Shown in pieces: positions 21,464 through 64,000 of a stretch of 64,000 nucleotides of DNA (positions are counted from its first letter, which is position 1; each line of letters starts with the position of its first letter). Origin of the DNA: a virus; IMG/VR virus record IMGVR_UViG_3300048582_000084, positions 17,137 through 81,136 of that record. One strand, 5' to 3'. The notes beneath the pieces are model-generated. The model was not told the origin of the DNA, ran no database searches, and worked only from the letters and a program-made list of their open reading frames with translations. The position numbers were made by a program, and so were the translations under genes.

Positions 21464-22651
21464 TCACTGGAATTCGGTGATATTTCCCTTGCGCGTCAGA
21501 TATTCGCCAGAGACGTTCTTGAGAATCTTCCGCCCGAAGCGGTGGACGTTTTCCTCCGTGGCGGAAGTGATGACGACACCTTCTCGAATGTGACCACCAC
21601 CGAGTGTGGTCTTGCCGTCAGTCAAGGACAGCATCGTCTCTCGATTGAACGGGCCTCGGTAGAGGACCGGCACAGTCGGGATGCCAAGGCGGTCGAGTAG
21701 GCTGTACTTGTCGGCGGCATCAATGAACCGACCGCCCTGGGGCGTGCCAACCCATAGGTCGAACGCACGGAAAGTCGGACTGCTGTGACCATAGCCCAGG
21801 TCCTGCACGCCGATTCCATAGACCTCACCGAAGAGGAATATCGGCGTCTCGGGCGGCGCCAGCCCCAGGTCGTACAGACCCTCCGCAAGGCGCTCTGTGA
21901 CGGTCGCGGCTAGGGCACTGTCGCTGGTCATCCCGTGGAACGCCTTCAGGTACACGTTGTCGGCGGGGGTGCCATCATCGTTCACCCATTTGAAGACGTT
22001 CCCACGCGCGCCGAGACCCTTCGAATAGACGAAGACGTCATCCGGAAGATCGGGGTGCATCAGCCCAGGGAAGTAGGCGAAGCAGCACATCGTCCCGTGT
22101 AGCTTCTCGGTGATGACGACTTCATCCCCGTCCTTGAAGATGTTCGGGTACTTCTTCCAGTTTTCGAAGTCGTACCGGACAGTCTTCTCGGGACCGACGT
22201 AGGCGCAGTTCCCATAGAACCGCTTCCGCAGTGCCGGGTCCATCGCTTCCATGGGGTCGTACTTCTTGACGCCAAGGAATTCGGTGACGTCGTCGCCTTC
22301 GGAGACCTCGACGGCCTGAAGATTTCCAGCACCCCGTACTACATGGCAGGAGTGATCCACCATTTCGTTGACCTGATACACGATCCCCTGGCTCAGACAG
22401 CCGCGCAGCTTGATCGCCTTGATGCGGTTCTTCTGCGAGCCGGATAGCTTACCGACCAGATTGAGCCTTTCGATCAGCCACTCAGGTAGAACGGAGGCCT
22501 CGGGTAGATAGACCGCGAGGTCGCCGGGCTTGAACGAGCCCTTAGCAACGATGCTACGGTACTCTCCGACAACGGCGAGTTCGATCTTGTCGGCGCCCTC
22601 GACGGGCTCGATGGCGCTGATACGCTCCACCGTCACTACAAAGTCAGACAT
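21464..22651 (-). CDS. RNA ligase, Deinococcus Rnl5 type
   Basis: 395 residues. An N-terminal OB-type domain (VERISAIEPVEGADKIE...GDLAVYLPEASVLPEWL) precedes a nucleotidyltransferase domain. The lysine of motif I is in EKLHGTMCCF (about residue 180); other motifs are VFVYSKGLGARG, PIFLFGEVYG and a late IREGVVI. The KxHG motif with an N-terminal OB domain is the mark of DraRnl/Rnl5 ligases, which join 3'-OH/5'-phosphate RNA nicks and tolerate damaged ends. The leader AAGGATCATAAAATG supports the start. It forms its own transcription unit bounded by hairpins. It likely works with Pnkp (26788) to mend cut RNA. Confidence 0.88.
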   Translation of the reverse strand: MSDFVVTVERISAIEPVEGADKIELAVVGEYRSIVAKGSFKPGDLAVYLPEASVLPEWLIERLNLVGKLSGSQKNRIKAIKLRGCLSQGIVYQVNEMVDHSCHVVRGAGNLQAVEVSEGDDVTEFLGVKKYDPMEAMDPALRKRFYGNCAYVGPEKTVRYDFENWKKYPNIFKDGDEVVITEKLHGTMCCFAYFPGLMHPDLPDDVFVYSKGLGARGNVFKWVNDDGTPADNVYLKAFHGMTSDSALAATVTERLAEGLYDLGLAPPETPIFLFGEVYGIGVQDLGYGHSSPTFRAFDLWVGTPQGGRFIDAADKYSLLDRLGIPTVPVLYRGPFNRETMLSLTDGKTTLGGGHIREGVVITSATEENVHRFGRKILKNVSGEYLTRKGNITEFQ

Positions 22652-23547: not shown

Positions 23548-24711
23548 TTAACCGTTCAGATCGACTGGAGTTGCGGTCCAAGGCTCGACGCCTCCCAACA
23601 AGGCGAGAAATTCGCGCGCCTTGGTCGTTGAAGACACTTGCTTTAGGGCATGCTGACGCAGTGCCTCCAAAGGATCGGCCCCATCGTAGATTCGGAAGCA
23701 GATCGATGTAGCGAACTGGTAATTGGAGAACTTGTCCCGCACGTACTGTGCGAAAGCCTTCCGGTCTCGGTGAACGAAGGAGGGAGAATTAACTGCCCCG
23801 TTACGGATGATGGCAGCGACGATCCTGAGCCGCCAGTTCAGCGCATCGCGCCACGCCAGCAGCCGCTTCGCCTCGTCCTCAGGCAACAGAGCCGACACAT
23901 CATCGACCTTGTTCTCTAGTACGAGCCGAAGGACGTCCTTTTCCCACAACAGCCCCGAGCGAGCCCGGTGCGCTGCGACGTAGTCGTCGGCCTTCAGCTT
24001 GATGAGTTGCTGGCCCACGCGAACGACATAGCCCTCCGTGTCCTTCAGCGCCTTCGTGTGTTCCACGAACGCGTTGATGTCTTGGATGGCGTTCCCGAAG
24101 ATACGGACGGCGCCAACTCCCAGTTTATTCAGCGTTTCTGCGAACGGGGCGGTGTCCGCATACGTGCCGGTGTCGTTCATTCTTACGGCGAGAAGTGTGA
24201 GGTTCTCGCTCGCGTAGCGAACAACGATCTGGTTGAGGGGCGACGTGAATTCGAAGATAGGCGTTGCGCCTCCACGAAGAACACCTTCGCACCATGCTAG
24301 GACAAACTCACCGAGCGGCAGTCGCTTGCACGCCGCCAGCGCCATCTTCGCCTGCTCGGTGACGCCTGCCCTGGTCATGAAGACCAGTTCGTCGTTAACC
24401 ATCGCCGGGTGGATCATTGACCCGTCCAGCTTCTCCATGATCACAGCGTCGTCCCAAGACGTCGGGATTTCGGCGGGCTTCTCATGGAGGTTGAAGAACT
24501 TGTGGAACGGGCGGGCGATCAGCTTACCGTCGAGGTCGAACTTGAGACCCCGGCACTCGCGGCGGATCGGGCAGTCGAAAGAATCCGAATCCGCGTAGTT
24601 GTAGTCGATGAACATGTAGCCGTCTCGTTTACCGACCACGAATTCATCGCGTTCAGCAATCGCGGGTAGCACGTCATTGATGTGGTGGATCACGGGAAAA
24701 TCATAGGGCAT
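23548..24711 (-). CDS. rnlA: T4 Rnl1-type RNA ligase
   Basis: 387 residues from the ATG at 24711, which has a strong AGGAGAAGAACC ribosome site; the longer frame upstream has none. Motif I is EKLDGSM (Lys near residue 100), preceded by RECRGLKFD and FHKFFNLHE, exactly the T4 RnlA layout. Motif III-like FEFTSP and motif IV EGYVVRVG follow, with EGYVVRVGQQLIKLKADDYV (motifs IV-V). The family seals tRNA cut in the anticodon loop after Pnkp has healed the ends. Together with Rnl5 and Pnkp it forms a tRNA-repair set that defeats anticodon nucleases. Confidence 0.93.
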   Translation of the reverse strand: MPYDFPVIHHINDVLPAIAERDEFVVGKRDGYMFIDYNYADSDSFDCPIRRECRGLKFDLDGKLIARPFHKFFNLHEKPAEIPTSWDDAVIMEKLDGSMIHPAMVNDELVFMTRAGVTEQAKMALAACKRLPLGEFVLAWCEGVLRGGATPIFEFTSPLNQIVVRYASENLTLLAVRMNDTGTYADTAPFAETLNKLGVGAVRIFGNAIQDINAFVEHTKALKDTEGYVVRVGQQLIKLKADDYVAAHRARSGLLWEKDVLRLVLENKVDDVSALLPEDEAKRLLAWRDALNWRLRIVAAIIRNGAVNSPSFVHRDRKAFAQYVRDKFSNYQFATSICFRIYDGADPLEALRQHALKQVSSTTKAREFLALLGGVEPWTATPVDLNG

Positions 24712-24742
24712 TGGTTCTTCTCCTGAGTGGGTTTTGGTTTTC

Positions 24743-24770
24743 AAAAAAAGAGAGCCTAATCGGGCTCTCC
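24743..24770 (-). terminator. Terminator after the DNA ligase
   Basis: Stem GAGAGCC/GGGCTCTC with a T7 run on the minus strand, overlapping the last codons of the ligase and ahead of the Rnl1 ribosome site. Confidence 0.85.
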
Positions 24771-25631
24771 TATATCAATCGGGTCTCTAAATCCTTGAAA
24801 CGAAGGAATGCGTGGCTTGTTCTTCGTACCATCTGGTTGGTATCGAAACTTCACCGTCTTTCCGAGATAGTCAGAGCGGTTGTCCCAGATTTCTTGGCGC
24901 AACTTTGCGTCGAATCCTGTACCTAGATTGAAGAGCCCAAACTGTGAGTTTTCAAGAATTAACGAACCCATCGTTCCGGCTGGAACAAGGTTCTTCTTGG
25001 AAGAGCTGCGCTTAGTCCGCCCAAAGGCGTCTTTGATCGCTTCGTTTTCGTTGTGCATAAGTTCTTCGAAACCGACAACGACCGCTTCGTCGTCCTTGAA
25101 GTTCTTAAGTTTCAGGAGGATACCTTCTCGTTCCGTAGAACGCCCGAACTTGTAGTAGCTTCGCGGTGAGCGGATCATCGACCCTTCGAAGTTTTGCGAC
25201 AGATCGACGTGGAGATTAACGACCTCGTCCCAAGACGACGCTTCGTATTGCGGAGTAACGATGAGAAACTTGATTCCAATAGCCGCCGATACTCGGCGCC
25301 TCAAGATCGCCAATCGCGCTGTGAAGATCAGTAGCGGATCAGTGAAATCATCGAACACATAAAACGTGAAGTTTGGCTCACCAGCTTCGCGCATGACGTT
25401 GCCGGTCGTCTCTTGAAATGTGTCTCCAGCAATAAGTTCTCCGTCGAAACCGCTAAACTCTGGCCTGGACAGCGTCGTCCTGATGAAGTGGTTGGGGATC
25501 GGCTTCAGTGTGCGGCTGACAAGCTGACCATCGATAACGAGGGCACGAATGCCGTCGAGTTTGGGGGACACGTAAACCGGGAAGGTCAGCTTCGCCGGGT
25601 CTGTCAATTCTGCTGCAAGAAGGGGTTTCAT
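24756..25631 (-). CDS. ATP-dependent DNA ligase
   Basis: 291 residues. Motif I SPKLDGIRA (nucleophile Lys about residue 24), motif III FDGELIAG, motif IV EGSMIRSP and motif V ILLKLKNFKDDEAVVVG are clear, followed by a small OB domain (GTMGSLILE...KTVKFRYQPDG). Size and layout are of the T7/T3-like minimal phage ligases. It seals Okazaki fragments and repair nicks. The start is the ATG at 25631 (a TTG sits just before it); the ribosome site lies inside the preceding terminator stem (AAGGTGGG). Confidence 0.93.
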   Translation of the reverse strand: MKPLLAAELTDPAKLTFPVYVSPKLDGIRALVIDGQLVSRTLKPIPNHFIRTTLSRPEFSGFDGELIAGDTFQETTGNVMREAGEPNFTFYVFDDFTDPLLIFTARLAILRRRVSAAIGIKFLIVTPQYEASSWDEVVNLHVDLSQNFEGSMIRSPRSYYKFGRSTEREGILLKLKNFKDDEAVVVGFEELMHNENEAIKDAFGRTKRSSSKKNLVPAGTMGSLILENSQFGLFNLGTGFDAKLRQEIWDNRSDYLGKTVKFRYQPDGTKNKPRIPSFQGFRDPIDIGEPD

Positions 25632-25632
25632 C

Positions 25633-25655
25633 AAAAACCCACCTTTCGGTGGGTC
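25633..25655 (-). terminator. Terminator before the DNA ligase
   Basis: Stem ACCCACC/GGTGGGT, loop TTTC, T5 on the minus strand. Its 3' arm also serves as ribosome site for the ligase, so folding could affect translation. Confidence 0.8.
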
Positions 25656-25981: not shown

Positions 25982-26325
25982 TAGGTGCCATCCTTTCGAA
26001 TAATCTCAGCAAGGCCCCGAAGCAATTCCAACTGCGCCTCTGCGTCGAGCATTGCGCGCCGCTTAGTTTCTGCAACGGCGTTATCGAAGGCGTCTTGATC
26101 CACCACGCGGGCCGAGACGATTTCTTCGGTAGCAATCACCATTTCGCCGTCGAGGGAGATGAGTCGATGGCTGGAGTTATCAGGGTCGTTGTAGCGCCGA
26201 GTCCCGATCTTGGGCGCGAGGCTTTCTAGCTGTTCTAGCGCCGCTTCTTGGGTGCCAAACGTAAGTCTGTGAGAAATCGGCGTGTACTTACCTGTGACGA
26301 TTTCTAGGTAGAAAGTAGTCACCAT
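25981..26325 (-). CDS. Small protein, unknown
   Basis: 114 residues, alpha/beta N-terminal half (TTFYLEIVTGKYTPISHRLTF) and helical C-terminal half. The start overlaps the stop of the 26325-26579 gene, the stop overlaps the next start, so it belongs to the same unit. No family recognised. Confidence 0.6.
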   Translation of the reverse strand: MVTTFYLEIVTGKYTPISHRLTFGTQEAALEQLESLAPKIGTRRYNDPDNSSHRLISLDGEMVIATEEIVSARVVDQDAFDNAVAETKRRAMLDAEAQLELLRGLAEIIRKDGT

Positions 26326-26579
26326 CAGTTTGACTCCTTAATCATAGGTTCGTAGGTCATGGCGAAAATATCAGGCTTGCACGGGTAACACTCACCCTGG
26401 ACGCCTCGGATAACCCAATCCGACGGCGATGCCGTCATTGAGCCCTCAAGCGTGTGGATCACCAGGGTTTCGTATTCGCTGCTCTCCCATTCAGCGTCCC
26501 GTAGAATGTGATGAAGGTCAGCCAACGCCGCCTCGGAGATGTCTTCTCCCGCAGGCGGTAGTTGGACTGCCTCAATCAC
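26325..26579 (-). CDS. Conserved phage protein, unknown
   Basis: 84 residues. The C-terminal segment SDWVIRGVQGECYPCKPDIFAMTYEPM is a pattern found in many unrelated phage genomes (WIIRG..GE.YPCKPDIF..TYE); no biochemical role is known to me. Located in a run of overlapping small genes downstream of Pnkp. Confidence 0.75.
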   Translation of the reverse strand: MIEAVQLPPAGEDISEAALADLHHILRDAEWESSEYETLVIHTLEGSMTASPSDWVIRGVQGECYPCKPDIFAMTYEPMIKESN

Positions 26580-26605
26580 GACAGGCTTCTTTCGGTAGAA
26601 GGGAA

Positions 26606-26791
26606 TTAGCCGTCCCTCCGCGTGACACCGAGCCAGTTATCCAGCGCGCCCTCTTCAATCGAACGGCGGCGTGAAAAACTATCGAGATAGGCAGCGGCGG
26701 CTTCCGGATTGTACTTCCGGATCAGGCTCGCGATATAGCGAGCCTGCGCGAGCGTCTTCACCTTCACAGGCGGTTCAGCCATAGTATTCAT
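26606..26791 (-). CDS. Small helical protein, unknown
   Basis: 61 residues, helical and basic. Its start overlaps the Pnkp stop (ATGA), so it is translated with Pnkp. No family recognised. Confidence 0.6.
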   Translation of the reverse strand: MNTMAEPPVKVKTLAQARYIASLIRKYNPEAAAAYLDSFSRRRSIEEGALDNWLGVTRRDG

Positions 26792-46649: not shown

Positions 46650-46738
46650 TGGTGGGCGATGTAGGATTCGAACCTACTCACTCCCTAAGGAGAACAGATT
46701 TACAGTCTGTCGCGACTCTCCAACTTCGCCGCTCGCCC
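46650..46738 (-). tRNA. tRNA-Tyr(GTA)
   Basis: Anticodon arm ACAGA-CTGTAAA-TCTGT, long variable arm, T-loop TTCGAAT and encoded CCA. Acceptor GGGCGAG/ATCGCCC has a mismatch at the seventh pair. Confidence 0.9.
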
Positions 46739-46747
46739 GAAAGGGGA

Positions 46748-46978
46748 TTAGTATTTGCGCCTGTTTGCCACCCGTTCGGCGGTTCGGTAGCACTCACCGA
46801 AGAGTGCTTGGCAGTATAGTTCTAGGCTCTTCTCGTTTCGCCACAGCGTGCGCCGCCTGGGAGATCGAGTGTTCCTTTGGGGGACAGCCACGCGCGCCAT
46901 CGCCCGATCCTGAAGAACGGTAACGAGGCACCGGAATCGGCGCTTGCGGTGCCGAGAGATTTCGTATCGGTAGATCAT
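46748..46978 (-). CDS. Small very basic protein
   Basis: 76 residues, rich in Arg (RRRTLWRNEKS). The start overlaps the DUF1289 stop (ATGA), which supports translation. No family recognised; probably binds nucleic acid. Confidence 0.5.
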   Translation of the reverse strand: MIYRYEISRHRKRRFRCLVTVLQDRAMARVAVPQRNTRSPRRRTLWRNEKSLELYCQALFGECYRTAERVANRRKY

Positions 46979-47145
46979 CGACTCAATAAATCCTTCATGA
47001 TGATGTCTCGTTCGTCGTCAGTCATACCGCCCCACTTCGCGATTTCCGCTAGGGTGCGTTTGCAGCCGATGCAGCGTTTGGTGCCGTCTTCGATGCGCTC
47101 GATCTGACATAGACGGGTGCAGGGGGAGATCATTACTAGTTCCAT
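46975..47145 (-). CDS. DUF1289 protein
   Basis: 56 residues from the ATG at 47145. ISPCTRLCQIERIEDGTKRCIGCKRTLAEIAKWGGMTDDERD is the DUF1289 signature with four Cys (metal-binding type). Bacterial members are small Fe-S or zinc proteins of unknown function. Its presence in the tRNA block suggests a host-derived cassette. Confidence 0.85.
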   Translation of the reverse strand: MELVMISPCTRLCQIERIEDGTKRCIGCKRTLAEIAKWGGMTDDERDIIMKDLLSR

Positions 47146-47151
47146 AAAAGG

Positions 47152-47174
47152 AAAAGGAGACCTTCCGGTCTCCC
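47152..47174 (-). terminator. Terminator of the tRNA array
   Basis: Stem GGAGACC/GGTCTCC (loop TTCC... closing) followed by TTTTCCTTTT on the minus strand. Confidence 0.85.
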
Positions 47175-47184
47175 CTCCACGAAC

Positions 47185-47261
47185 TGGTCTGCACGACAAG
47201 AGTTGAACTTGCGACCCTCGCGTCCCAAACGCGATGCTCTACCGGGCTGAGCTACATGCAG
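47185..47261 (-). tRNA. tRNA-Pro(TGG)
   Basis: Acceptor CTGCATG/CGTGCAG, anticodon arm TCGCG-TTTGGGA-CGCGA, T-loop TTCAACT and encoded CCA. Confidence 0.92.
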
Positions 47262-47269
47262 TAATTGAT

Positions 47270-47344
47270 TGGCTGCCCGCTGAGGGGTCGAACCTCTGCC
47301 TCAGGGACCAAAGCCCCGCGTTCTGCCAGCTAAACTATCGGGCA
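47270..47344 (-). tRNA. tRNA-Gln(TTG)
   Basis: Acceptor TGCCCGA/GCGGGCA with a mismatch at the last pair, anticodon loop CTTTGGT (TTG), T-loop TTCGACC, encoded CCA. Confidence 0.9.
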
Positions 47345-47353
47345 CTATGAAAT

Positions 47354-47447
47354 TGGCGGAAGGAGTAGGATTCGAACCTACGCGGGCACTTCACAGCACA
47401 CCGACCGCTTTCCAGGCGGTTGCAATAGTCCACTCTGCCATCCTTCC
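47354..47447 (-). tRNA. tRNA-Ser(GGA)
   Basis: Acceptor GGAAGGA/TCCTTCC, anticodon arm ACCGC-CTGGAAA-GCGGT, long variable arm typical of tRNA-Ser, discriminator G, encoded CCA. Confidence 0.93.
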
Positions 47448-47452
47448 TGAAA

Positions 47453-47528
47453 TGGCTCGGGAGGGAGGGTTCGAACCTCCAACCACGCGATTAACAGTCG
47501 CGGGCTCTGCCAGTTGAGCTACTCCCGA
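47453..47528 (-). tRNA. tRNA-Asn(GTT)
   Basis: Acceptor TCGGGAG/CTCCCGA, anticodon arm CGCGA-CTGTTAA-TCGCG, T-loop TTCGAAC, encoded CCA. Confidence 0.93.
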
Positions 47529-47532
47529 TAAT

Positions 47533-47607
47533 TGGTATCCCTAGGCGGATTTGAACCGCCGTTCTCGGATTGAAAATCCGGCGTCCTGACCACTAGACGA
47601 TAGGGAC
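47533..47607 (-). tRNA. tRNA-Glu(TTC)
   Basis: Acceptor GTCCCTA/TAGGGAT with end wobble, anticodon loop TTTTCAA (TTC), T-loop TTCAAAT, encoded CCA. Confidence 0.92.
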
Positions 47608-47610
47608 ATA

Positions 47611-47684
47611 TGGTGCCGGTTGCAGGAATCGAACCCGCGTGGCCGCGTTACAAAGGCGGTGCTTCGCCACTAAGCTAAACCGGC
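47611..47684 (-). tRNA. tRNA-Thr(TGT)
   Basis: Acceptor GCCGGTT/AACCGGC, anticodon loop TTTGTAA (TGT), T-loop TTCGATT, encoded CCA. The pair closing the anticodon loop is C-C mismatched. Note that the integration site is another Thr tRNA (GGT). Confidence 0.9.
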
Positions 47685-57638: not shown

Positions 57639-57723
57639 TGGTGCGGGCGGAGGGATTCGAACCCCCACGGATTTCTCCACTGAAACCTAAATCCAGCGTG
57701 TCTGCCAGTTCCACCACGCCCGC
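57639..57723 (-). tRNA. tRNA-Leu(TAG)
   Basis: Acceptor GCGGGCG/CGCCCGC, anticodon arm CTGGA-TTTAGGT-TTCAG, long variable arm, T-loop TTCGAAT, encoded CCA. It stands apart from the array of seven tRNA genes. Confidence 0.93.
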
Positions 57724-58895: not shown

Positions 58896-59846
58896 TCAAA
58901 GCAGGTTATCACCCGCGTGGTTCTTGAAGCGCTCAGCGACACGGACGTAGCCGAGAGTTGTCTGAATCGAGGCATGGCGGGCGTGGTGACTGATTGCCGA
59001 CATGTCCTTTCCAGCAAGCGCTGAGGCGGTGCAGAAGCCTGCCCGCAAGCTGTGCGGACTGATCTTCCCTCCCAGCCCCGCCCGCTCCACCGCTTTCGCG
59101 AGGATGAGGCGAATCGCTTCTTCGCTGAGGGCTTCGCTCCCAACCGAACCGTTCTTCAAGACGCGTCGGAAGACGCTGCCGGAAGAGATGTTGGAAGCCT
59201 GAAGCCACGCAGCGATGGCGCGGACGGGGCACATAAGCTGGTTCTTGGCGTAAGGGATGGACACTTCAGCCCCCTTCCCTTCCTGATCCGTCTTGGATCG
59301 GTCGAGTTTGACGACGACGCCTTCGGAAACGAATTCAAGGTTCTCCACCGAGATCGCAGTGATCTCGGAGCGTCGAAAGGCGCCCGCGAAGCCAATCAAC
59401 AGGATCGCCTTGTCGCGAAGGCCCGAAACATCGAGACCAGTGGTCGAGACCAAGCTGGCCAGATGCTCAGGGAGAATGGCTTCCGCCTTCTCGACCTTGC
59501 GGGTCGAGGATCGGCGGATGCCAGCCATTACTTCGGCCAGGATCGGGTCTTGCCAGTTGAGAACAAGACGGGCGCGGTCGTGAAAGTACTTTACCGCCGA
59601 AAGGTGCGACGTCACCGTCGAAACCGCCTTGCCAGACTTCGCGAGCGAGGCGAGGTACACGGCAACGAACTGGATGCTGCTCGGGAGCGGGCTTGTCCCA
59701 TGCTCCGCGCAGAAAGCCAGGAAGGTCTTCCAGCTTGACGTGTATTGCTTGACGGTTCCGCTGGCGCGGCTGGCGGCGGCGTAATCGAGCGTGTCCTCAA
59801 TCAGCGAGGTGAGCGCTGCCGTGGGGTTGGTGACGGTGAGGGACAT
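58896..59846 (-). CDS. Second tyrosine recombinase
   Basis: 316 residues from the ATG at 59846 (GGACGAG upstream). Complete catalytic set: Arg in AFRRSEITAI, HSLRAGF (HxxR), ARHASIQTT (H) and LGYVR (Tyr). The N-terminal SAM-like core-binding domain (TVKQYTSSWKTFLAFCAEHG) is also present, but there is no arm-binding domain. This is the Cre/XerC-like simple form, often used to resolve dimers rather than integrate. Distinct from the integrase at 11834. Confidence 0.92.
   Translation of the reverse strand: MSLTVTNPTAALTSLIEDTLDYAAASRASGTVKQYTSSWKTFLAFCAEHGTSPLPSSIQFVAVYLASLAKSGKAVSTVTSHLSAVKYFHDRARLVLNWQDPILAEVMAGIRRSSTRKVEKAEAILPEHLASLVSTTGLDVSGLRDKAILLIGFAGAFRRSEITAISVENLEFVSEGVVVKLDRSKTDQEGKGAEVSIPYAKNQLMCPVRAIAAWLQASNISSGSVFRRVLKNGSVGSEALSEEAIRLILAKAVERAGLGGKISPHSLRAGFCTASALAGKDMSAISHHARHASIQTTLGYVRVAERFKNHAGDNLL
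59583..59593. repeat. AAAGTACTTTA motif copy 7
   Basis: Exact copy, inside the second recombinase gene. Confidence 0.65.
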
Positions 59847-59877
59847 CGGTTTTCTCGTCCTTTGGTTGTGAAAATTG

Positions 59878-59906
59878 CAAAAGACGCATCCCGAAGGATG
59901 CGTCTC
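59878..59906 (-). terminator. Terminator before the second recombinase
   Basis: Stem AGACGCATCC/GGATGCGTCT, T-run on the minus strand. Confidence 0.85.
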
Positions 59907-59911
59907 TGTAC

Positions 59912-60034
59912 TCACTCGGCGGGCGGCTTGTCTTTCCGACGCTCATCGAATCGCTTCTTCGCGGGAAGCAGCCCGAAGCGCACGACGATGAAGATCACCA
60001 GAACAACCGAGAATACGGCTTCTGCGACCATCAT
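59912..60034 (-). CDS. 40-residue membrane protein
   Basis: ATG overlaps the upstream stop (ATGA). One hydrophobic span (AVFSVVLVIFIVVRFGLL), then a charged tail (KKRFDERRKDKPP). A typical phage membrane micro-protein. Confidence 0.6.
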   Translation of the reverse strand: MMVAEAVFSVVLVIFIVVRFGLLPAKKRFDERRKDKPPAE

Positions 60035-61371: not shown

Positions 61372-62793
61372 TCAGCCGACCTTGTAGCGGTCGTTCATGA
61401 TGGCGTTCAGCATGATGTCCTCGGGCGTGAAGTTGTCACCATTCAGCAGCGCCTTCAGCAGCGCAGGCGAGTAGCCGCCCACCAGGGCCGTGCCGTCGTC
61501 CCGAATGGTCACCGGGTTGTTGCCCAGGCGAGCGTTCAGGTTCCAGAACACGATCTGCGGCATCGCGTATCCGGCCTTCGCATAGGCCTTGCGGACCATG
61601 TCGAGCGCGGTAGCATTGTCGCATGCCTTATCGAACTCCATATCCGACAGGATCAGGAGCTTGCGCGGCATGTCCTGCGGCGCGACGTTGTTCGCGACGG
61701 CGATTTCCAGAATCTTCCGGAACGCCGCATCGATGTTGGTCGAACCCATGAAGTTGTCATTGATCTTCGCCAGCTTCGCCTTGAGCGACATCGTGTCAGC
61801 AAGCTGCACGACGCGGGTCGAGGACGAGAAGGTGAAGACGAGGTTCTTGAAGGCACCCGTCTGGCGTTCGGCGGTATAGAGGCCGAGCGCCATCGCCGTG
61901 TCGCGGCAAGTGACCGACGACTTGCTTTCCCTTCCGCCGAGAGGGCAGCACATCGAACCGGAGAGGTCGATGAGGGGCAGAATCCCCGCGTCGCTGCCCA
62001 GGTAGTCGGGCAGGGAACGCCACTGCGCCTCGGCCACGACCGTGTCGCCACGGCGATACCCGGAGATGACGTCGTGCGGGAAGATCGCGGACGCGTTCAC
62101 CTTCGCGGTGCCATCGTTCTTGACCAATGCAGCCTTGTAGGCCGCATAGGCCTCGACGGCGCGCTTGTTGAACGCCTTCTGGTAACGCTTCGCCGCGACC
62201 GACGGGACGTGGCTGAAGTTGATGCTGTCCCATTCGCGGGCGCACATCTTCTGCTCGACCGTGTCGGACAGCCCGACGATCAGCTTCCGGTATCCCTTCG
62301 GCGTCAGTCCGAGAGCCTTGCGAAGGGCTTCGGCATCGGCACCCTTGCGGGGCATCCACTTCGCCGCCAGTCGGTCACCGTTGGTGAGCCCCTGGTCGAT
62401 GAAGGCGAACGCGAAGTCTCGGGCGGCGTCGCCGACTGCAAACAGATCGTCCCAACGGCCGACCTCGGGCGTCTTGGTGACGACCAGGGCAGCGTCGTTT
62501 GCGTTGATCTGGGACAGCCAGGACAGCAGGTAGCGGAAGGTCTGACGCTCGCCAGCGCCGCCGCGAATGTCGCGGAGCCAGAGCAGGGTACGCAACGCGT
62601 ACTCGCGGTTCTCCGCATATGCGCGCTGGAAGAGGATGAGGGCCTGGGCCTCCTTGCCACGCATGGCCGGGGCCTGGGCGAAGAAGTCCACGCACGCGCT
62701 GTGCGTCGTGAGGTTGGTGGCGGCACCGTTCGTGGTGCGGCTGAGATTGGAGCCAGCCCCGTTGGAGCGGGCGGCGGCGGATGCAAAGGTCAT
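61372..62793 (-). CDS. DUF2828 / von Willebrand A protein (Ro60-like layout)
   Basis: 473 residues. The N-terminal half fits DUF2828: TTNGAATNLTTHSACVDFFAQAPAMRG, then LRTLLWLRDIRGGAGERQTFR. The C-terminal half is a vWA domain with the metal site LIDLSGSM (DxSxS), a GSTNID Thr and LLILSDMEFD. Helical repeat plus vWA is the architecture of Ro60/TROVE proteins, which bind misfolded RNA and Y RNA. DUF2828 itself has no proven role known to me. It lies next to a structured non-coding region (63127-63790). Good ribosome site AGGAGACTTAACCC. Confidence 0.82.
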   Translation of the reverse strand: MTFASAAARSNGAGSNLSRTTNGAATNLTTHSACVDFFAQAPAMRGKEAQALILFQRAYAENREYALRTLLWLRDIRGGAGERQTFRYLLSWLSQINANDAALVVTKTPEVGRWDDLFAVGDAARDFAFAFIDQGLTNGDRLAAKWMPRKGADAEALRKALGLTPKGYRKLIVGLSDTVEQKMCAREWDSINFSHVPSVAAKRYQKAFNKRAVEAYAAYKAALVKNDGTAKVNASAIFPHDVISGYRRGDTVVAEAQWRSLPDYLGSDAGILPLIDLSGSMCCPLGGRESKSSVTCRDTAMALGLYTAERQTGAFKNLVFTFSSSTRVVQLADTMSLKAKLAKINDNFMGSTNIDAAFRKILEIAVANNVAPQDMPRKLLILSDMEFDKACDNATALDMVRKAYAKAGYAMPQIVFWNLNARLGNNPVTIRDDGTALVGGYSPALLKALLNGDNFTPEDIMLNAIMNDRYKVG

Positions 62794-62883
62794 TGGGTTA
62801 AGTCTCCTGAGTGGGTTGGTAGCAGGCTGCTCCCTTTGCTTCAGAGTTAAGGTCTGATGGGATGTGTGCTGTGGGCAGCCTTC

Positions 62884-62909
62884 AAAAAAAGACCCCTTGC
62901 GGGGGTCTC
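62884..62909 (-). terminator. Terminator after the 62908 gene
   Basis: Stem GACCCC/GGGGTC with T7 on the minus strand. Confidence 0.85.
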
Positions 62910-63102
62910 AGTCCAAGTATTCTCTATCATCTTCCGGCTCAACCGGAGACGGCGTCTGCCCGGCAGCGCGCTCGATGTCGTCCGCAATCTCGTACAGTCG
63001 AGCGCGGATGTCGTTGCTGCGGTCGTTTGGGCGATGGTCGGGCGCTGGATAGGTGTCGCGAATCCACTGCGCGTGGGCGAGGAGTTGGGCGGTGGTGGGC
63101 AT
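62908..63102 (-). CDS. Small helical protein, unknown
   Basis: 64 residues, helical (AQLLAHAQWIRDTYPAPD, IRARLYEIADDIERAAG) with an acidic tail. Next to the DUF2828 gene and following the structured RNA region. No family recognised. Confidence 0.55.
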   Translation of the reverse strand: MPTTAQLLAHAQWIRDTYPAPDHRPNDRSNDIRARLYEIADDIERAAGQTPSPVEPEDDREYLD

Positions 63103-63126
63103 GGTAAGTCCTTGATGGGGTTCGGT

Positions 63127-63148
63127 AAAAAAGCCCCCAGGGCCTTAC
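63127..63148 (-). terminator. Terminator of the structured region
   Basis: Stem GCCC/GGGC (AGGCCC...GGGCT) followed by T6 on the minus strand. Confidence 0.7.
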
Positions 63149-63282
63149 ACCAAAGGGCTCCGCGCCCCCACCGCCAGCCTTGCGGTTCCTCCGGATTATG
63201 AGTCCGGTGTGCTTTCTATCGTTGACGCGATGTGGCCTAGGCCTGCTGCCTTTCGGCGGGACTGCTTACCCGTCAAAGTAAG
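63149..63282 (-). ncRNA. tRNA-Met-like structured RNA candidate
   Basis: On the minus strand, AGAAAGCACACCGGACTCATAA followed by TCCGG has the D-arm end and anticodon arm of a tRNA-Met (stem CCGGA/TCCGG, loop CTCATAA). Then comes a 5-bp stem ACCGC/GCGGT with a 7-nt loop AAGGCTG in the T-arm place, but there is no TTCRA loop, no pairing acceptor and no CCA. Not a working tRNA. It is bounded by terminators on both sides, as expected for a small RNA unit. Confidence 0.4.
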
Positions 63283-63283
63283 C

Positions 63284-63316
63284 AAAAACCCATCAGACAT
63301 TTCTGTCATGATGGGT
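63284..63316 (-). terminator. Strong terminator inside the structured region
   Basis: Stem CCCATCA/TGATGGG with a further GACA/TGTC pairing, T5 on the minus strand. Confidence 0.85.
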
Positions 63317-63428
63317 CTGGAAGATCGCTCCTAGTGACGCTGGACCTTCAAAGCGGTCCCCCTCTTGTTCGGTCGGGGGCTCTGACTCTCTTGCGAGTAC
63401 CTAGCCCCGTTATCGCGCGATTCGGAGC
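63317..63428 (-). ncRNA. Second small RNA candidate
   Basis: About 110 nt between two terminators, with a hairpin GGGGCT...AGCCCC (inner ACTC-GCAA-GAGT) and a GGACC/GGTCC hairpin. No credible ORF with a ribosome site. It may be a structured small RNA. Confidence 0.35.
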
Positions 63429-63453
63429 AAAACGGGAGCCCTGGGGCTCCCGT
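63429..63453 (-). terminator. Terminator inside the structured region
   Basis: Stem CGGGAGCC/GGCTCCCG, T4 on the minus strand. Confidence 0.85.
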
Positions 63454-63787
63454 ACTATTACTACGCATGCTGTTGGCCGGTTTCGATACCGACTTAGGAT
63501 TTACGAACCTGTTTTGTGGGTTTGCCGACACCGGACAGTCGTCTTCTAAGTTCTTGCGAACAAGGTAGCCACCACATTTTACTCAGCGATGTCTTGACCA
63601 TCTAGGGATTCGGGCATCGCCTTGCTGCGTGTCCTTCCACGCCGCAACAGCAGAAACGTCCCTTTCGGGACGTTCAGGATACGCATTTTTACGCGTGCTT
63701 CTACTGCACCACCGCCGCGCATGTGCGGCGACCAGGGATTGCACCTGGGTCTCGCCCTCCAAATGGTTATAGTTGCTGTAGGTATCC
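63454..63787 (-). ncRNA. Structured non-coding stretch with tRNA-like arms
   Basis: About 330 nt without a convincing gene. Minus-strand hairpins: CCAGG-TGCAATC-CCTGG (like a T-arm with one loop change, followed by TCGCCGC-A), CGCCGC/GCGGCG, AACGTCCC-GAAA-GGGACGTT (8 bp, stable tetraloop) and CTTG-TTCG-CAAG. Order and loops suggest a folded RNA or worn tRNA genes. The ORFs that can be drawn here lack ribosome sites. Confidence 0.4.
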
Positions 63788-63809
63788 AAAAAGAGCCCGA
63801 AGGCTCTTA
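63788..63809 (-). terminator. Terminator after the right-edge gene
   Basis: Stem AGAGCC/GGCTCT, loop CGAA, T5 on the minus strand. Confidence 0.85.
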
Positions 63810-63820
63810 GCTCTTAGTTG

Positions 63821-64000
63821 TCAGAAACGCTCCATGTACGAGACGTCCTCGACTCGAACCCAGAATCCATCAGTGTAGAAAGTCACCGAATGCGCGAACA
63901 TGGAAGCGAAGGAGTTCCAAGCCTGTTCCGCAGTCGCGTCGTCAGTCGCTGAGAGGTCGAGTTCCTTGATAAGCCCGCTCTTGAAGAAGAAACGGACGGA
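63821..64000 (-). CDS. C-terminal part of an unknown gene (cut by window)
   Basis: An open frame enters from the right edge and ends at TGA (63821-63823), giving at least 59 residues: it includes LIKELDLSATDDATAEQAWN, a Phe-rich segment and a final DVSYMERF. Followed by a terminator, which supports it as a real gene. The start is outside the window. Confidence 0.6.
   Translation of the reverse strand, partial: SVRFFFKSGLIKELDLSATDDATAEQAWNSFASMFAHSVTFYTDGFWVRVEDVSYMERF

What the first reader, a model, noticed from the sequence alone, without database searches (positions are those of the whole stretch)
61372..63790. Ro60-like DUF2828-vWA protein beside a structured, tRNA-like non-coding region
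Seen: a helical-repeat/vWA protein with DxSxS site, and within 350 bp to 1 kb upstream on the same strand a 650-nt gene-free stretch with three internal terminators, a tRNA-Met-like anticodon arm and T-arm-like hairpins. Known: bacterial Ro60 proteins work with Y RNAs, whose YrlA class contains a tRNA-like module, and some phages carry Ro60/Y RNA. Inference: this may be a distant Ro60/Y RNA pair in which DUF2828 takes the TROVE role.
Basis: partly seen in the sequence, partly recalled or inferred. Interest (0 to 1): 0.75.

Follow-up and report, generated by a model that had tools for sequence, protein, structure and literature searches.

The report
Phage Ro60-like protein with Y-like RNAs
This phage encodes a ring-type RNA-binding protein resembling Ro60 beside a small RNA that imitates part of a transfer RNA; hundreds of phages carry the protein, and many carry similar RNAs marked by one shared short motif.

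Summary
The protein at 61372-62793(-) has no TROVE match (it is DUF2828/DUF7788, phrog_850), but its predicted structure matches Ro60/TROVE structures best, over its whole length. One RNA in the gap, 63676-63788(-), is Y-like: a terminal stem with a CAGCAA signature encloses a circularly permuted tRNA-like core. The window RNA scores best of both strands; a covariance model built without it finds it at E 3e-5; a relative (72% protein identity) has its orthologue with compensatory stem changes. A second copy, 62824-62881, lies in the gene's own leader, as in 27 of 41 loci, suggesting autoregulation. The 'tRNA-Met' hairpin and other units at 63127-63650 are unsupported. Phage Ro60/Y RNA pairs are already reported; the CAGCAA code (TROVE-type phages use GGUUACUUC) and leader copies make this a variant. 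RNA binding and function are inferred.

The parts
61372..62793 (-). Ro60-like protein, 473 aa (DUF2828/DUF7788, phrog_850): helical-repeat part plus vWA part with full MIDAS
63676..63788 (-). Y-like RNA 1: terminal stem GGATAC (63782-63787) with GTATCC (63677-63682), CAGCAA at 63773-63778, permuted tRNA-like core inside
   Evidence: 29.2 bits, best of 64 kb on both strands; orthologue in L077
63732..63748 (-). T-arm-like hairpin CCAGG-UGCAAUC-CCUGG of RNA 1
63712..63731 (-). acceptor-stem-like hairpin of RNA 1 (UCGCCGC with GCGGCGG, closed by a loop)
   Evidence: compensatory changes in the orthologue
63695..63709 (-). D-arm-like hairpin of RNA 1 (GUGC-AGUAGAA-GCAC)
62824..62881 (-). leader copy: stem AGGCUGC with GCAGCCU, CCACAGCAC tag, ending 31 nt before the ATG of the Ro-like gene
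   Evidence: 19.8 bits; 27 of 41 loci have a leader copy; orthologue in L077
63789..63808 (-). terminator-like hairpin AAGAGCC-UUCG-GGCUCUU directly before RNA 1
   Evidence: read; folded; same arrangement in L077
63655..63674 (-). strong hairpin AACGUCCC-GAAA-GGGACGUU directly after RNA 1, possible terminator
   Evidence: read
62889..62909 (-). terminator-like hairpin directly before the leader copy
63127..63650 (-). other hairpin-bounded units, including the tRNA-Met-like hairpin 63191-63207; nature unresolved, not shown to be Y RNAs

Best explanation
The locus encodes a phage Ro60-type ribonucleoprotein. Shown by comparison of sequences and of a predicted structure: the DUF2828/DUF7788 protein has the Ro60 fold, and it lies with RNAs that share a terminal stem, a CAGCAA tag and, in some, a permuted tRNA-like core as in YrlA Y RNAs. 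Inferred: the protein recognises the stem and CAGCAA, and the other end of the RNA is an exchangeable module; in RNA 1 it imitates a tRNA and would tether or decoy a tRNA-handling enzyme (such as an exonuclease, a modifying enzyme or an anticodon nuclease) in RNA quality control or repair during infection. Also inferred: the copy in the gene's own leader lets free protein bind its mRNA near the ribosome site and limit its own synthesis.
For: Top five PDB fold matches all Ro60/TROVE, E 7e-11 to 1e-6. CAGCAA next to a stem in 87 of 255 cases against 171 of 6727 anagram words. RNA 1 is the best place of the window, 29.2 bits, shuffles at most 21.9. Permuted-tRNA descriptor 0.11 expected per 64-kb strand. 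Covariance model built without the window: E 2.7e-5. Orthologous RNA and leader with compensatory changes in a relative with a 72% identical protein. YrlA model hits the core of the mycobacteriophage Finnry RNA beside the same protein type. Leader copies in 27 of 41 loci. Two RNA ligases in the same contig. Abundant RNA regions upstream of the homologous gene reported for Listeria phage CKA15 (PMC12282133).
Against: No binding or expression data for this phage. RNA 1 alone slightly prefers another fold (-39.1 against -37.0 kcal/mol) and its T- and D-loops are not canonical. Neither Rfam tRNA nor YrlA matches it. Some loci with the protein showed no copy in the stretch examined. No TROVE match in the protein. 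The most active CKA15 region given by coordinates does not coincide with CAGCAA copies.
Confidence: 0.78

Rival explanations
1. The CAGCAA stems are mainly cis-acting elements (leader autoregulation, processing or termination sites) that the protein binds to control phage transcripts; the tRNA-like core is passenger sequence taken from nearby tRNA genes.
For: Leader copies are the most regular feature (27 of 41); in two KVP40-type loci the stem covers the start codon; many copies are minimal 50-60 nt hairpins without a module; arrays lie in tRNA clusters.
Against: Copies lie far upstream or downstream of the gene in several phages, are bounded by terminators here and in L077, and the permuted core recurs with base pairs kept across unrelated phages and with the same order as YrlA.
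Confidence: 0.13
2. The RNA stretch is decayed tRNA genes and terminators, and its place beside the Ro-like gene is coincidence.
For: tRNA-Met-like hairpin at 63191-63207 without a tRNA match; a tRNA cluster elsewhere in the window.
Against: The order T-arm, acceptor, D-arm is permuted; the terminal stem and tag are shared with many phages; the orthologue keeps the helices. Only the 63127-63650 units could fit this reading.
Confidence: 0.04
3. The protein is a vWA chaperone or virion factor unrelated to Ro60 in function; the RNAs serve something else.
For: The CKA15 homologue is found in purified virions (PMC12282133); vWA proteins with chaperone partners are known in jumbo phages (PMC7824862).
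Against: Fold matches to Ro60 cover both parts while unrelated vWA proteins match only the vWA part at E above 1e-3; the RNA family tracks the gene.
Confidence: 0.05

Closest known systems
Bacterial Ro60 (Rsr) with Y/YrlA RNA (Deinococcus, Salmonella; Chen et al. 2013 and 2014 as cited in PMC7790460)
   Same: Ro60 fold with vWA; RNA with terminal stem and tRNA-like module encoded beside the gene
   Different: Protein is DUF2828/DUF7788 without a TROVE match; stem carries CAGCAA; leader copy. Cellular Rsr loci could not be fetched here, so their stems were not compared
TROVE-type phage Ro60 with YrlA (Thermus phiLo structure 9l5y; Xanthomonas Olaya, Gordonia Neville, Caulobacter CcrColossus, Streptomyces Alone3)
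   Same: Same predicted fold and same permuted tRNA-like core
   Different: RNA signature is GGUUACUUC-type, no CAGCAA stems in six loci; proteins match TROVE
'Ro-like RNA binding protein' of cluster L mycobacteriophages (Finnry)
   Same: Same protein family; CAGCAA-stem RNAs, one with a core hit by YrlA
   Different: About a third identical; array lies downstream; canonical T- and D-loops
Listeria phage CKA15 (P100-like) CKA15_055 and its abundant upstream RNAs (PMC12282133)
   Same: Same protein family; authors propose Y RNAs; a P100-like relative has three CAGCAA copies upstream
   Different: The most abundant region given by coordinates (26236-26727) is another RNA without the tag
IMGVR_UViG_3300043414_000781 (L077)
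   Same: 72% identical protein, orthologous RNA 1 and leader copy
   Different: Seven tagged RNAs, three with permuted cores, against two recognised in the window

Membership tests
Ro60/TROVE proteins | TROVE domain profile (PF05731) | tested here: not met
   no match in the protein or contig
Ro60/TROVE proteins | Fold: helical-repeat ring part followed by vWA | tested here: met
   AlphaFold2 model pLDDT 81; Foldseek top five all Ro60/TROVE over about full length, TM 0.39-0.60
Ro60/TROVE proteins | MIDAS metal site DxSxS, T, D in the vWA part | tested here: met
   invariant in 22 sequences
Ro60/TROVE proteins | Binds Y RNA and misfolded RNA ends | not testable with these tools
   needs binding assays
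YrlA Y RNA (RF02553) | Score at the Rfam cut-off | tested here: not met
   no match to RNA 1 at E<=10; Finnry core 39.5 bits, cut-off 69
YrlA Y RNA (RF02553) | tRNA-like module in the order T-arm, closed acceptor stem, D-arm inside a terminal stem | tested here: met
YrlA Y RNA (RF02553) | tRNA-type T- and D-loop nucleotides | tested here: not met
   T-loop UGCAAUC, D-loop AGUAGAA; the orthologue has UUUGAUU
YrlA Y RNA (RF02553) | Terminal signature as in TROVE-type phages (GGUUACUUC) | tested here: not met
   absent; CAGCAA instead
CAGCAA-stem RNAs of DUF2828-type phages (defined in this work) | Stem of 6-9 bp, about 3 nt, CAGCAA, 3' strand | tested here: met
   29.2 bits for RNA 1, 19.8 for the leader copy, which has CAGCAC
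tRNA (RF00005) | Cloverleaf matched by the tRNA models | tested here: not met
   no ARAGORN gene in the gap and no Rfam tRNA match in 62750-64000

The most novel reading that the evidence does not exclude
DUF2828/DUF7788 proteins are a second Ro60 lineage of phages with its own Y RNA code (stem plus CAGCAA), arrays of interchangeable modules (none, tRNA-like, nested tRNA halves, larger unclassified folds) and a copy in the gene's own leader, sometimes over the start codon, for feedback control; TROVE-type phages use another signature with the same tRNA-like module.
Probability: 0.5. Interest if true: 0.7.

Novelty: new variant of a known kind. Interest (0 to 1): 0.6.

Why it matters
Ro60 and Y RNAs occur from bacteria to humans, but their bacterial role is studied in few species, and many phage proteins of this family are still named hypothetical. 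A simple signature makes Y-like RNAs recognisable beside several hundred phage genes, including Felixounavirus, P100-like and mycobacterial laboratory phages, so what a phage uses a Ro60 particle for, and whether the protein controls its own leader, becomes directly testable. Two different stem signatures with one shared tRNA-like module suggest that the module carries the common function.

Tried and rejected
Rfam at the gathering score on the window and at E<=10 on its end gave no tRNA or YrlA match there. ARAGORN, also relaxed, gave nothing credible in the gap. Nucleotide searches of phages matched only the coding part. Exact pieces of RNA 1, the tRNA-Met-like hairpin and another unit have no match in IMG/VR. 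A TROVE search of the contig was empty. The search of cellular genomes found no relative, so TROVE-type phages served as comparison instead of bacterial Rsr loci. RtcB is absent here and present in only 2 of 26 related records, so a general RtcB link was dropped. The other 17 kb of the record gave no further permuted core and no tagged copy above the chance range. Reading the 63127-63650 units as diverged Y RNAs was tried by eye and dropped for lack of the signature.

Full report
Setting. The window is the last 64 kb of an 81-kb virus record. The gene 61372-62793 and the RNAs discussed are on the minus strand.

The protein. Pfam gives DUF7788 (2e-42) and DUF2828 (8e-25), with the Ro60 vWA model below its cut-off (6e-4). 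PHROGs gives phrog_850, 'RNA-binding protein' (9e-139). tblastn finds relatives in 681 phage records, already named 'Ro-like RNA binding protein' in mycobacteriophages. TROVE is absent from the contig. A profile of 24 relatives ranks vertebrate Ro60 first among solved sequences, weakly (E 0.007). AlphaFold2 on window and IMG/VR sequences gives pLDDT 81, pTM 0.76. Foldseek puts five Ro60/TROVE structures on top (E 7.3e-11 to 1.3e-6), including Ro60 of Thermus phage phiLo and Deinococcus Rsr; the matches after them are vWA-only at E above 1e-3. The MIDAS residues are invariant. The Ro60 fold is well supported, but it is a prediction.

The RNA family. Many relatives have gaps of 400-1000 nt upstream of the gene. 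These contain repeats of one plan: a stem of about 7 bp, about 3 nt, CAGCAA, a variable middle, the 3' strand, then usually GU. Over 51 loci, 87 of 255 CAGCAA words have, within 300 nt, an exact complement of the 7 nt at fixed distance before them, against 171 of 6727 for the other anagrams. The family is seen in phages of enterobacteria, Listeria, Campylobacter, Staphylococcus, Vibrio, Aeromonas, Enterococcus, Sinorhizobium and Mycobacterium. Many copies are 50-60 nt long. Some enclose a tRNA-like core in the order T-arm, acceptor stem closed by a loop, D-arm: a circularly permuted tRNA opened at the anticodon arm. Clear examples are JH2 (L047:5001-5053), Finnry (L052:4041-4096), L002, L003, L017, L028 and L030. 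In register with three TROVE-phage cores and the window core, 98% of cells pair and 14 of 17 pairs show changes on both sides, while sliding the partners drops pairing to about 42%. Most of these sequences were picked with a pairing rule and padded by hand into register, so these counts lean towards the structure.

The window's copies. A weight matrix plus stem score trained on 84 copies gives 63676-63788(-) 29.2 bits, the best of both strands; the next place has 20.7, and forty shuffled 64-kb sequences have maxima of 14.4 on average and 21.9 at most. A permuted-tRNA descriptor finds one place on the minus strand, inside the same RNA, where chance gives 0.11. The descriptor admits the T-loop variant that I had already seen in the window and L007. 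A covariance model built without the window finds 63695-63748 at 21.3 bits, E 2.7e-5; its other significant hits in the window overlap true tRNA genes, mostly the junction of neighbours, where the end of one tRNA and the start of the next imitate a permuted tRNA. The second copy, 62824-62881, lies in the leader (19.8 bits). Leader copies occur in 27 of 41 loci, against 0 to 6 for anagram words. Stenotrophomonas phage DLP6 shares the CCACAGCAC variant, and in L049 and L059 (Vibrio phages) the stem's 3' strand contains the start codon.

Orthology. A search with the window's RNA ligase uncovered a closer relative (IMGVR_UViG_3300043414_000781) whose Ro-like protein is 72% identical. Upstream of that gene are seven tagged RNAs (42.5 to 19.6 bits), three with permuted cores (36.0, 27.2, 26.7 bits), several directly after a UUCG hairpin with a U-run. 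One aligns with window RNA 1 over its length and one with the leader. The terminal, acceptor and leader stems differ by changes on both sides that keep pairing; the D-arm stem is identical. No model was trained on this relative.

What is weak. RNA 1 in isolation slightly prefers another fold (-39.1 against -37.0 kcal/mol), and its T- and D-loops are not canonical. The other units in 63127-63650, including the tRNA-Met-like hairpin, have no support beyond being hairpins. Not every locus with the protein showed a copy; some loci are cut short and only a few kb were read.

Relation to known systems. YrlA (RF02553) hits, below Rfam's cut-off but significant, lie beside TROVE-type Ro60 genes of Xanthomonas, Gordonia, Caulobacter and Streptomyces phages, and the core part of the same model hits Finnry's RNA beside a DUF2828 gene. 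The two protein types differ in the RNA signature: no CAGCAA stem in six TROVE loci against 34 of 51 DUF2828-type loci, while GGUUACUUC-type words recur only in the TROVE set. Likely Y RNAs near Ro60 in bacteria and phages were reported by Chen et al. 2014 (cited in PMC7790460 and PMC12282133); I recall its abstract but could not read it. The Listeria phage CKA15 study reports three very abundant RNA regions upstream of its Ro-like gene, suggests Y RNAs, and finds the protein in purified virions. The kind is therefore known; the CAGCAA code, the leader copies and the breadth of the arrays are what this work adds, subject to that unread paper.

Mechanism. Shown: predicted fold, gene-RNA neighbourhood, RNA architecture, conservation by compensation. 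Inferred: the protein holds the CAGCAA stem and the module end recruits or imitates. In Deinococcus, Y RNA tethers Rsr to PNPase (PMC7790460). With two RNA ligases in the same contig, RNA quality control or repair is the likeliest setting. The leader copy most simply means feedback by the protein on its own translation.

Noticed in passing
window 21464-22651(-) and 23548-24744(-): Two RNA ligases (PF09414 type with PHA02142 OB fold; T4 Rnl1 type PF09511) and a DNA-ligase-like gene at 24756-25634; RtcB is absent.
   Followed up: partly
L058:2135-2377 (Vibrio phage vB_VpaP-MS02): One CAGCAA-stem RNA appears to hold two nested tRNA-like units made of exchanged tRNA halves, with a second CAGCAA inside.
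   Followed up: partly
L049:2427-2466 and L059:2428-2466: In two Vibrio phages the 3' strand of the leader stem contains the start codon of the Ro-like gene.
   Followed up: partly
L009:2849-3249, L005:1775-2010, L003:1264-1749: Larger CAGCAA-stem RNAs (160-250 nt) with other conserved inner folds, not tRNA-like; at least two further module classes.
   Followed up: no
L062 (Listeria phage cka15), record 26236-26727: The most abundant RNA region of CKA15 lies upstream of the Ro-like gene but no CAGCAA-stem copy was found in the equivalent stretch of L051; a different ncRNA.
   Followed up: partly
window 63191-63207(-): Perfect anticodon-arm-like hairpin CCGGA-CUCAUAA-UCCGG followed by a 5-bp hairpin with a 7-nt loop, without a tRNA match; possibly a decayed tRNA.
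   Followed up: partly
window 46650-47684(-) and 57639-57723(-): Cluster of seven tRNA genes and a single tRNA-Leu near the integrase gene 58896-59915; the head-to-tail junctions give false hits to the permuted-tRNA model.
   Followed up: no
L065:5381-5613 (Streptomyces phage Alone3): A manA RNA match of 47.8 bits, below its cut-off of 55.2, in the tRNA region of a TROVE-type phage.
   Followed up: no
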